Assembly (NCBI GenBank): GCA_030694265.1
Contig: JAUXYP010000004.1
Location: 1-64,000 of the forward strand
Direction: 5' to 3'
DNA length: 64,000 nucleotides
Source of the DNA: Sulfuricurvum sp.
GTDB lineage: Bacteria; Campylobacterota; Campylobacteria; Campylobacterales; Sulfurimonadaceae
Numbering within the stretch: position 1 is the stretch's first letter; each line of letters begins with the position of its first letter. Both the position numbers and the translations under genes were made by a program. Below the pieces are notes generated by a model. It had not been told where the DNA came from. It saw only the letters and a program-made list of their open reading frames with translations, and did no database searches. Shown in pieces: positions 31,823 to 34,262 of this stretch.

Positions 31823-32524
31823 TTAAAACATAGGTGAGCCAAAATCCAAACCGCCGCCGAAACTCATATTGGGGTCTTGATACCCCATCATGGCGCTTTT
31901 GGTCCGTAACATGGTAATGTCCTGCTTAGGCGCAATACCTTGAGGACACACCGGAACACACTCGCCGCACAGGGTACAATCCCAAATTCCGTTTGTTTGT
32001 ACTGCTGTTATTTTGGCATCACTTTGTGTTTGGCGCGGATCGCTGACATAACGCCAAACACGCGTGAGGGCAAAGGGACCAATAAAATCAGGATTTACGG
32101 CATATACAGGACACGCGCTATAACACGCTGCACATAATATACAATCACTTTGCGTTTCGATACCACTCATATCTTCTTCGCTGACGGCACCTGCACGTGA
32201 TTCCTCGCTCCATGCATTGGCCATACGGTTAAAATGCTCAACATTTGAGTTTTCAACCACCAAATCACGAATTACTGTTGCGTTGCGCATCGGCTCTACA
32301 AGATCACCGTCAGCTGGTTTGTATTCACACATCAGAACTTCACGCCCGTTAACACGAACAGCACAGCTTCCGCACACACCACTGCGGCATCCATGCGAAT
32401 AGGTCAGTGTTGAATCGACTTTTGTTTTGACGTGATTGAGGATGGTGAGTAACGTTACGTTCTCAAAATCAACTTCATACCCCCGCGGTTCATCTTCATG
32501 GCTGCGTTTTACTAAAATAGTCAT
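31823..32524 (-). CDS. Succinate dehydrogenase/fumarate reductase iron-sulfur subunit (non-classical)
   Basis: A 233-residue protein. The [2Fe-2S] site is CRSGVCGSCAVRVNGREVLMC (about 46-66). Two further motifs follow: CILCAACYSACP and CTLCGECVPVCP. In classical SdhB/FrdB the last motif lacks one cysteine and holds [3Fe-4S]; here all four are present, so a second [4Fe-4S] is likely. No C-terminal CCG domain is fused. The start codon overlaps the stop of the small acidic gene by one base. In Campylobacterota this enzyme would serve the oxidative or reductive TCA cycle. Confidence 0.85.
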   Translation of the reverse strand: MTILVKRSHEDEPRGYEVDFENVTLLTILNHVKTKVDSTLTYSHGCRSGVCGSCAVRVNGREVLMCEYKPADGDLVEPMRNATVIRDLVVENSNVEHFNRMANAWSEESRAGAVSEEDMSGIETQSDCILCAACYSACPVYAVNPDFIGPFALTRVWRYVSDPRQTQSDAKITAVQTNGIWDCTLCGECVPVCPQGIAPKQDITMLRTKSAMMGYQDPNMSFGGGLDFGSPMF

Positions 32525-32652
32525 CAGTCACACCACTCTCTTTCTTCATCTTCATCTTCATCTTCTTCGTCGTCGTCATAAGCGTCTTCACAGCAAATAT
32601 CTTTGTGATCGCCAGGGATATTTTCTTCCCACTCTTTATTATCACCTGTCAT
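32524..32652 (-). CDS. 42-residue acidic microprotein between SdhA and SdhB
   Basis: The frame begins ATG at 32650-32652, eight bases after the flavoprotein stop, and ends in a TGATG overlapping the iron-sulfur subunit start. The product is MTGDNKEWEENIPGDHKDI followed by a CC pair and then an almost continuous run of Asp and Glu, ending REWCD. It has three cysteines, a very low pI, and no recognised domain. Its position locked between two subunits of one enzyme and the shared stop/start make it likely to be translated. It may be an assembly factor, a missing small subunit or a coupling peptide; I do not recognise a family. Confidence 0.6.
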   Translation of the reverse strand: MTGDNKEWEENIPGDHKDICCEDAYDDDEEDEDEDEEREWCD

Positions 32653-32660
32653 AGTGATCT

Positions 32661-34262
32661 TTAGTTCATAAAATCCGCGCATAGCACTCCATCCTCTTTC
32701 CAAGTAATTGTGTGAGATCCAAACAGTGCATCATTTCGTACAGGCATATCACTGCGATAATGCGCCCCCCTGCTCTCATTGCGACTGATTGCACACACCA
32801 CGATAATCTCTGCGAGCTCAAGCTTATTACCAAACTCAATAAACTCTACGAGATTGGTATTGCATATTTTCGACTTATCCTGTGGCCCCATAAACGGCAG
32901 CTCTTTTTGCATCTGCCCAATCGCGTCAAGAACGGCTTTGAGCCCCATTTCCTCACGTATCACACCGACGTTGTTATAGAAAATGTTTGCTAACATCTCT
33001 TGTTTTTCATAAAAATCAATTTGATTGGTAAAACACATCACCCCATTTACGAAATCAGTATCTTTATCAAACTGTGGATTTTCTAGTTCAGGAGCAGATA
33101 TTTTCACTCCGAACTGTGCCGCATTTTTCCCGCAATGACGTCCGAATACCACGAGTTCCAAAAGTGAATTCCCCCCCAAACGGTTTGCCCCATGTGTTTT
33201 GTGATTTGCGCACTCACCCACAGCAAACAAACCGCTAACACCTGTCATACACTCATCATTAACTTCAATACCACCCATGCTGTAATGCGCTGCGGGTTTG
33301 ATCGCAATGAGATCATATACCGGATCAATCCCCTCATAAATTTTTGCCAATTTTCGCTCTTGCGGTAATTCATGGCTGATAAATTCTTCCCCCAAATGGC
33401 GAATATCCAAATAAACCGCACCACCCGATGCTATCTCATCGTGTATTGCACGTGCGACCATATCGCGAGGCCCCAATTCATCGGTAAAACGTTCTTTTTG
33501 CGCGTTGAGCAAATATCCACCCGCTCCACGAGCACTCTCAGATATCAATATGGAAGAGCTTTTAAGTGCTGTGGGATGAAACTGGATAAATTCCAAATCT
33601 GCTAGCCGTGCACCCGCACGTATCGCAGCGGCGATTCCATCGCCGGTACTTCCTACGGAGTTCGTCGAGTGCTTACCATACAGCGCACCGTATCCGCCCG
33701 TTGCCATTATCACACTGTCCGCACGTATCTCTTCTACATCACCCGTAGGGATATTCAAACACGTCGCACCCAACGCACGATTACTCTCTTCATCCACGAT
33801 AATATTGAGTAAAAACCTCTCATTCATAAACGTAATACCCGCTTTTAAACACTGATCATACAGGGTATGCAACAGTTTTAATCCCGTATAGTCTTGCGCA
33901 TAACATGCTCTTGGCGCTGATGCACCGCCCAAACGTCTACGGGCAATTTCACCCGATGCATCACGGCTAAAAGGAAGCCCAATTGTATTACACCATCGTA
34001 TTGCATCAGGAGCGTTTTCACACAAAAATGCAATCCGCGATTCATTTCCCAACCCTGCACTGGATTTTAGGGTATCGGCTATATGATTCGAAACCGAATC
34101 ATCATCCCCTAAAACTGCATTCATGCCACCCTGCGCCATTGAGGTTTGGGAACGTGTCGGAAGGGTTTTAGTGATAACAATCACTTCGGCACCCGATTCA
34201 TGGGCTGCAAGTGCGCTCACCAATCCAGCACCGCCACCGCCGATAATTAATACTTTAGCCAT
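32661..34262 (-). CDS. Succinate dehydrogenase/fumarate reductase flavoprotein subunit (non-covalent FAD type)
   Basis: A 533-residue FAD enzyme. Residues 8-13 (GGGGAG) bind FAD, and the catalytic block has FHPTALKSSSILISESARGAGG and HKTHGANRLGGNSLLE. There is no Tat or Sec signal, so it is cytoplasmic. The segment PTRSQTSMAQGG has glutamine (residue 39) in place of the histidine that carries covalent FAD in SdhA and FrdA, so FAD should be held non-covalently. L-aspartate oxidase was considered but the neighbouring iron-sulfur subunit argues for the fumarate reductase group. No membrane-anchor gene is adjacent. Confidence 0.85.
   Translation of the reverse strand: MAKVLIIGGGGAGLVSALAAHESGAEVIVITKTLPTRSQTSMAQGGMNAVLGDDDSVSNHIADTLKSSAGLGNESRIAFLCENAPDAIRWCNTIGLPFSRDASGEIARRRLGGASAPRACYAQDYTGLKLLHTLYDQCLKAGITFMNERFLLNIIVDEESNRALGATCLNIPTGDVEEIRADSVIMATGGYGALYGKHSTNSVGSTGDGIAAAIRAGARLADLEFIQFHPTALKSSSILISESARGAGGYLLNAQKERFTDELGPRDMVARAIHDEIASGGAVYLDIRHLGEEFISHELPQERKLAKIYEGIDPVYDLIAIKPAAHYSMGGIEVNDECMTGVSGLFAVGECANHKTHGANRLGGNSLLELVVFGRHCGKNAAQFGVKISAPELENPQFDKDTDFVNGVMCFTNQIDFYEKQEMLANIFYNNVGVIREEMGLKAVLDAIGQMQKELPFMGPQDKSKICNTNLVEFIEFGNKLELAEIIVVCAISRNESRGAHYRSDMPVRNDALFGSHTITWKEDGVLCADFMN

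What the first reader, a model, noticed from the sequence alone, without database searches (positions are those of the whole stretch)
32524..32652. Acidic 42-residue microprotein locked between SdhA and SdhB
The frame fills the gap between the two enzyme genes precisely and overlaps the SdhB start by one base. The product is very acidic with three cysteines, one a CC pair. Known assembly factors of this enzyme (SdhE flavinylation factor) have a different sequence. It could be a cluster-handling, assembly or regulatory subunit missed by standard gene-calling.
Basis: partly seen in the sequence, partly recalled or inferred. Interest (0 to 1): 0.62.

Follow-up and report, generated by a model that had tools for sequence, protein, structure and literature searches.

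The report
Conserved acidic microprotein between sdhA and sdhB
A tiny, very acidic protein with no known relatives in the libraries searched is encoded between the two genes of an anchor-less fumarate reductase-like enzyme in Sulfuricurvum and some related bacteria, and its conservation shows it is a real gene, probably a dedicated helper of that enzyme.

Summary
The ORF is real. All 40 Sulfuricurvum genomes with an orthologous sdhB were examined: in 37 an acidic ORF lies at the sdhA-sdhB junction, in one it stays with sdhA while sdhB lies about 2.7 kb away, one is degenerate, one lacks it. It also occurs in five other genera of the family, but in none of the loci named Sulfurimonas, Sulfurovum or Arcobacter. 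Coding evidence is strong: dN/dS 0.10-0.14, purifying selection in this frame only, and an A-ending sdhA leucine codon creating the ATG in 41 of 41 comparable loci. Constant features are an acidic tract and the C-terminus E-[RK]-E-[WYM]-C-D; the CC pair is in only 23 of 52 junction ORFs. No Pfam, NCBIfam or PDB match. The enzyme resembles an anchor-less two-subunit fumarate reductase placed in the reductive TCA cycle; its SdhA lacks the FAD-linking histidine, so an SdhE-type role is unlikely. Best reading: a trans-acting accessory or assembly protein. Main rival: an acidic nascent peptide tuning sdhB translation; genomes where it is decoupled from sdhB argue against that. Function is untested.

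The parts
   Evidence: coding constraint; single match in own genome
32661..32682 (-). overlap of the microprotein N-terminus with the sdhA C-terminus; the ATG is made by the sdhA Leu codon CTA followed by TGC
32687..32690 (-). GGAG, Shine-Dalgarno-like, 4 nt upstream of ATG 32682, inside sdhA
   Evidence: read from the sequence; not tested
32542..32577 (-). run of 12 consecutive Asp/Glu codons (DDDEEDEDEDEE)
32527..32544 (-). C-terminal motif EREWCD before TGA
32661..34262 (-). sdhA-like flavoprotein subunit, 533 aa, RSQT in place of the RSHT of complex II (no covalent-FAD His)
31823..32524 (-). sdhB-like iron-sulfur subunit, 233 aa, third cluster motif CTLCGECVPVCP (Cys in place of Val)

Best explanation
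The ORF encodes a short, largely disordered, strongly acidic protein made together with an anchor-less two-subunit SdhAB/FrdAB-like enzyme. It most likely acts in trans as that enzyme's dedicated accessory or assembly protein: its acidic tract and C-terminal E-[RK]-E-[WYM]-C-D motif would bind immature or assembled SdhA/SdhB, keep the iron-sulfur subunit competent or gate access of its electron partner, and its Cys residues may help with metal or thiol chemistry. Shown: the coding gene, its conservation, its tie to the sdhA/sdhB locus, the conserved C-terminal Cys-Asp, and retention when decoupled from sdhB. Inferred: binding to SdhAB, the assembly or gating step, and any metal or thiol role.
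For: Frame-specific purifying selection. Acidic ORF at the junction in 51 of 89 loci, 52 if degenerate L007 is counted, and at no other genomic place in 228 family genomes or 398 order genomes, so it belongs to this enzyme's locus. C-terminus E-[RK]-E-[WYM]-C-D kept with synonymous codon changes (GAA/GAG, AGA/CGN, TGT/TGC, GAC/GAT, TGA/TAA/TAG). It is kept where the stop is not at the sdhB start: L040 (135 nt), L048 and L057 (19 nt), L065 (12 nt), L091 (3 nt); G124, where three other genes, one on the opposite strand, lie between it and sdhB; and G048, where no sdhB follows in about 145 nt held. In L048 it overlaps neither neighbour. That points to the peptide, not only the junction. [quoted passage not shown]
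Against: No homology to any assembly factor. The predicted structure is of low confidence and without fold (mean pLDDT 59.8), so nothing shows a binding surface. SdhA and SdhB of carriers are not more basic than those of non-carriers (P 0.67 and 0.21). Many relatives, including all loci named Sulfurimonas, have the enzyme without it, and L017 lost it within Sulfuricurvum, so it is not essential to the enzyme. Length varies from 26 to 78 aa, and in-frame repeat insertions are tolerated. No expression evidence was available.
Confidence: 0.55

Rival explanations
1. Cis-acting nascent peptide: the acidic run destabilises or pauses the ribosome, and with the conserved residues before the stop it sets how much sdhB is translated, like the acidic leader or intergenic ORFs MgtL and MgtQ.
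For: Runs of up to 12 D/E. In most carriers the stop overlaps the sdhB start. Acidic nascent chains pause ribosomes, and EttA relieves this for some E. coli TCA and glyoxylate-shunt enzymes (PMC11282234, abstract and one section read). MgtQ is an 8-aa acidic ORF between mgtC and mgtB that promotes mgtB translation (PMC8092293, outline and discussion read).
Against: The C-terminal motif and acidic tract persist when sdhB is 135 nt or about 2.7 kb away or not following. No unusual RNA structure at the junction (z -0.07) and no Rfam match. In the EttA study acidic residues had to lie within the first 30 aa; here the 12-residue run starts at residue 36, though in the short forms it lies earlier. 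No EttA-family hit passes the cut-off in the own genome (best 439.5 against 806.75 bits). CCED conservation far from the stop is not predicted.
Confidence: 0.2
2. Stable small third subunit of the enzyme, for example a docking surface for the unknown electron donor of the cytoplasmic fumarate reductase, rather than an assembly factor.
For: One gene placed between the two subunit genes; no evident membrane anchor beside the pair; acidic chains are common docking surfaces for redox proteins (own knowledge).
Against: Predicted disorder, strong length variation, absence from many genomes with the same enzyme.
Confidence: 0.15
3. Passive translational relay: the frame only has to stay open so that ribosomes run from sdhA to sdhB.
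For: One-base stop/start overlaps; insertions of dispersed repeats keep a frame open up to the sdhB start, in some loci by a new second ORF (L005, L018, L034, L036); loss in L017 leaves direct sdhA-sdhB overlap.
Against: A relay does not need purifying selection on residues, CCED, or the EREYCD/EKEWCD end in decoupled loci.
Confidence: 0.07
4. Chance open frame or ribosome-binding-site artefact.
For: A GA-rich stretch gives an acidic frame easily; openness alone has a chance of 1.5% to 14%.
Against: dN/dS near 0.1 and no such signal in the other frames; start codon held at a synonymous sdhA site.
Confidence: 0.02

Closest known systems
SdhE / SdhAF2 / Sdh5 (PF03937) flavinylation factor
   Same: small protein tied to a complex II flavoprotein
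   Different: no PF03937 match in the own genome and no Pfam hit for the microprotein; SdhE acts at the FAD-linking His (FrdA H44; PMC5773532 passages), which this SdhA lacks; the microprotein is acidic and predicted disordered
MgtQ / MgtL acidic regulatory ORFs (ribosome destabilisation)
   Same: short acidic ORF; MgtQ lies in an intergenic region just upstream of the gene it affects
   Different: MgtQ has 8 codons and works through mRNA structure; here 26-78 aa, no structure signal, motif kept when decoupled from the downstream gene
Small accessory subunits of respiratory enzymes such as CydX or mycobacterial SdhF (recalled, not searched)
   Same: very small ORF in the operon of the enzyme it serves
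   Different: those named are membrane peptides by recall; this one is acidic and looks soluble by sequence

Membership tests
SdhE/Sdh5 flavinylation factors | match to PF03937 or the RGxxE motif | tested here: not met
   no Pfam family for three microproteins at E up to 1; no RGxxE in the window sequence; own genome has no PF03937 match
SdhE/Sdh5 flavinylation factors | client flavoprotein with a covalent-FAD histidine | tested here: not met
   Gln aligned to the His of 6lum_A; RSQT in 26 of 27 SdhA of L107-L133, the other (L110) being cut short
Acidic ribosome-destabilising regulatory ORFs (MgtL, MgtQ) | acidic residues early in the ORF and a cis effect on the downstream gene | tested here: inconclusive
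   acidic run present but late in the long forms, earlier in the short ones; cis effect cannot be measured; decoupled loci argue against
Acidic ribosome-destabilising regulatory ORFs (MgtL, MgtQ) | alternative mRNA structures over the downstream ribosome-binding site (MgtQ type) | tested here: not met
   z-score -0.07, no Rfam match
SdhAB-dedicated accessory protein (functional class) | gene confined to the enzyme's locus | tested here: met
   one site per genome, at sdhA/sdhB; G124 shows two matches at the overlapping ends of two contigs; the G171 match at E 0.058 holds stops
SdhAB-dedicated accessory protein (functional class) | physical binding to SdhA or SdhB and effect on assembly or activity | not testable with these tools
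   needs co-purification and knockouts

The most novel reading that the evidence does not exclude
A new family of disordered acidic Cys-Asp-tailed proteins serves as an assembly chaperone or electron-donor gate for the cytoplasmic fumarate reductase of the reductive TCA cycle, an enzyme whose electron donor is not named in the passages I read.
Probability: 0.35. Interest if true: 0.7.

Novelty: new variant of a known kind. Interest (0 to 1): 0.5.

Why it matters
If it acts on the enzyme, it gives a handle on how the anchor-less fumarate reductase of CO2-fixing Campylobacterota is assembled and which partner feeds it electrons. It would also be an example of a family-specific small protein that keeps only charge and a C-terminal motif while length and middle drift. 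A start-codon knockout in a cultivable Sulfuricurvum would test this directly.

Tried and rejected
Charge compensation between the peptide and SdhA/SdhB: no difference between carriers and non-carriers. mRNA structure or a known RNA family at the junction: none. Solved structures by sequence profile: none at E up to 5. Structure prediction: low confidence, no fold. Fusion to SdhA by frameshifting was considered and set aside: in L048 the ORF starts after the sdhA stop and the sdhA end varies in the overlap. The CCG-domain protein as a missing subunit of this enzyme: in the own genome it sits beside a second SDH set with a His-bearing SdhA, so it is not evidence for this pair. Papers: 7 answered searches; none of the titles or abstract starts listed described this microprotein. 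This is no proof that it is unpublished.

Limits. The ORF filter required a Cys next to the end, so the constant Cys-Asp is partly circular; the unfiltered frame listings were read first, and in them I saw no acidic junction ORF with another ending except degenerate L007. L062 has no start codon in the frame found and may be broken. The dN/dS count left out the seven loci with in-frame insertions and used only codons after the sdhA stop; the pooled Sulfuricurvum and other-genera sets were saturated and gave no ratio. Profile A1 misses many of the short forms, so the tallies are lower bounds. The 50 loci outside the genus were picked by hand from the ranked list, which was itself cut short, so their 14 carriers are not a frequency. 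The promoter, the age of the G124 rearrangement and expression were not studied.

Full report
What is there. On the minus strand the window carries sdhA (34262-32661), a short ORF, and sdhB (32524-31823). The short frame is open, acidic and ends TGATG, its stop overlapping the sdhB start by one base. A start codon 21 nt further upstream, present in many but not all, was not excluded.

Is it coding? All 40 Sulfuricurvum genomes with an orthologous sdhB (of 41 genus genomes; G098 gave only a weak match and was not fetched) were examined. In 37 an intact-looking acidic ORF lies at the junction. In G124 it is intact but separated from sdhB. L007 is degenerate. L017 lacks it and its sdhA runs directly into sdhB. 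After the sdhA stop, 13 CCED-bearing Sulfuricurvum sequences give dN/dS 0.10 and 17 short ones 0.14. Over 39 pairs of equal gap pattern pN/pS is 0.18 in frame, against 2.43 and 0.83 in the shifted frames. The start ATG depends on an A-ending sdhA leucine codon: 41 of 41 carriers with Leu-Cys at that place have CTA or TTA, against 4 of 12 non-carriers (Fisher P 6e-7, not corrected for relatedness), while such codons are 23.5% of leucine codons in 38 large window ORFs.

Where it occurs. Among 50 further loci from other genera of the family, hand-picked, 14 have such an ORF: genera g7, g11, g14, g15 (L062, without a start) and g16. In the named collection 28 of 63 sdhB loci have it, all from records with SdhB at least 68% identical, except L137 (57%). 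None of the loci named Sulfurimonas, Sulfurovum or Arcobacter has it, nor have two records named Sulfuricurvum (L139, L145) whose SdhB is only 59% and 51% identical. Profile searches found it in 12 of 398 genomes of the order and 34 of 228 of the family at the E-values used (one of the 34, G171, holds stops and is probably chance), one site per genome apart from the two overlapping contig ends of G124. On an SdhB tree of 121 rows carriers and non-carriers need 7 changes, against about 40 for shuffled labels; direction was not inferred.

What is conserved. Length is 26-78 aa, median 44, median net charge -14 (50 sequences). The end E-[RK]-E-[WYM]-C-D varies synonymously; exceptions are E-V-E-W-C-D in L047 and L049, E-K-G-W-C-D in L036 and E-H-D-W-C-D in L058. 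A WxxGCCED-like block is present in many forms and absent in short ones; CC is in 23 of 52 junction ORFs by my count. The middle tolerates in-frame insertions of dispersed repeats. The predicted structure is without fold. No Pfam, NCBIfam or PDB relative was found.

Natural tests of the junction hypothesis. The C-terminal motif stays when the stop is 3, 12, 19, 19 or 135 nt from the sdhB start. In G124 one contig ends with sdhA and the peptide gene, and its last 149 bases equal the first 149 of a second contig, where a gene on the opposite strand and two others precede sdhB; how old this arrangement is, I cannot say. In G048 no sdhB follows in the roughly 145 nt held. These cases favour a peptide that acts in its own right, but each could be recent.

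The enzyme. SdhA (533 aa) aligns Gln with the FAD-linking His of complex II, and SdhB has Cys in place of Val at the third cluster site, which by general knowledge suggests a [4Fe-4S] rather than [3Fe-4S] cluster. No evident membrane-anchor gene lies beside the pair in the window or in the six relatives in which both genes were listed; I judged this by reading ORFs, not by a family search. The own genome also holds a second set: a 570-aa SdhA with RSHS, a 317-aa SdhB and a CCG-domain protein. PMC4674564 (passages read) reports two fumarate reductase/succinate dehydrogenase copies in a related population genome, one of two subunits, and cites the proposal that the latter is cytoplasmic and part of the reductive TCA cycle. 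That the window's enzyme is of that type is my inference.

Mechanism. I rank a trans-acting accessory or assembly protein first (0.55), a cis-acting acidic nascent peptide second (0.20), a stable third subunit third (0.15). Precedents for the second are read in PMC8092293 and PMC11282234. Against it stand the decoupled loci, the lack of RNA structure and of an EttA hit above the cut-off. Against the first stand the lack of any binding evidence, equal charge of SdhA and SdhB in carriers and non-carriers, and the many relatives that do without the peptide.

Verdict. A real small gene that no library searched here classifies; the function is plausible but unproven.

Noticed in passing
L003, L033 (inside the ORF); L004, L015, L028, L034 (inside); L005, L018, L034, L036, L038 (after it): Dispersed repeat-like elements sit repeatedly at this junction, in frame inside the peptide or after it, where some create a second ORF ending GWCD or GCD that again overlaps the sdhB start; the flanks look like short target-site duplications.
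   Followed up: partly
window:31823-34262: The sdhA/sdhB pair lacks the FAD-linking His and has an extra Cys at the third cluster site, so it is unlikely to be a canonical quinone-linked complex II.
   Followed up: partly
L170:4695-8282: The own genome holds a second succinate dehydrogenase/fumarate reductase set with a His-bearing SdhA, a longer SdhB and a CCG-domain protein.
   Followed up: partly
L062: The acidic frame follows the sdhA stop in the same frame and has no start codon; it looks frameshifted or broken.
   Followed up: no
L055: In this relative a repeat-like insertion seems to have broken the peptide frame; a GAGTGGTGTGACTGATG remnant remains before sdhB.
   Followed up: no
window:31275-31772: A YajQ-like gene follows sdhB, an arrangement also seen in L171, L172, L173 and L175 (gene name by recall, not searched).
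   Followed up: no
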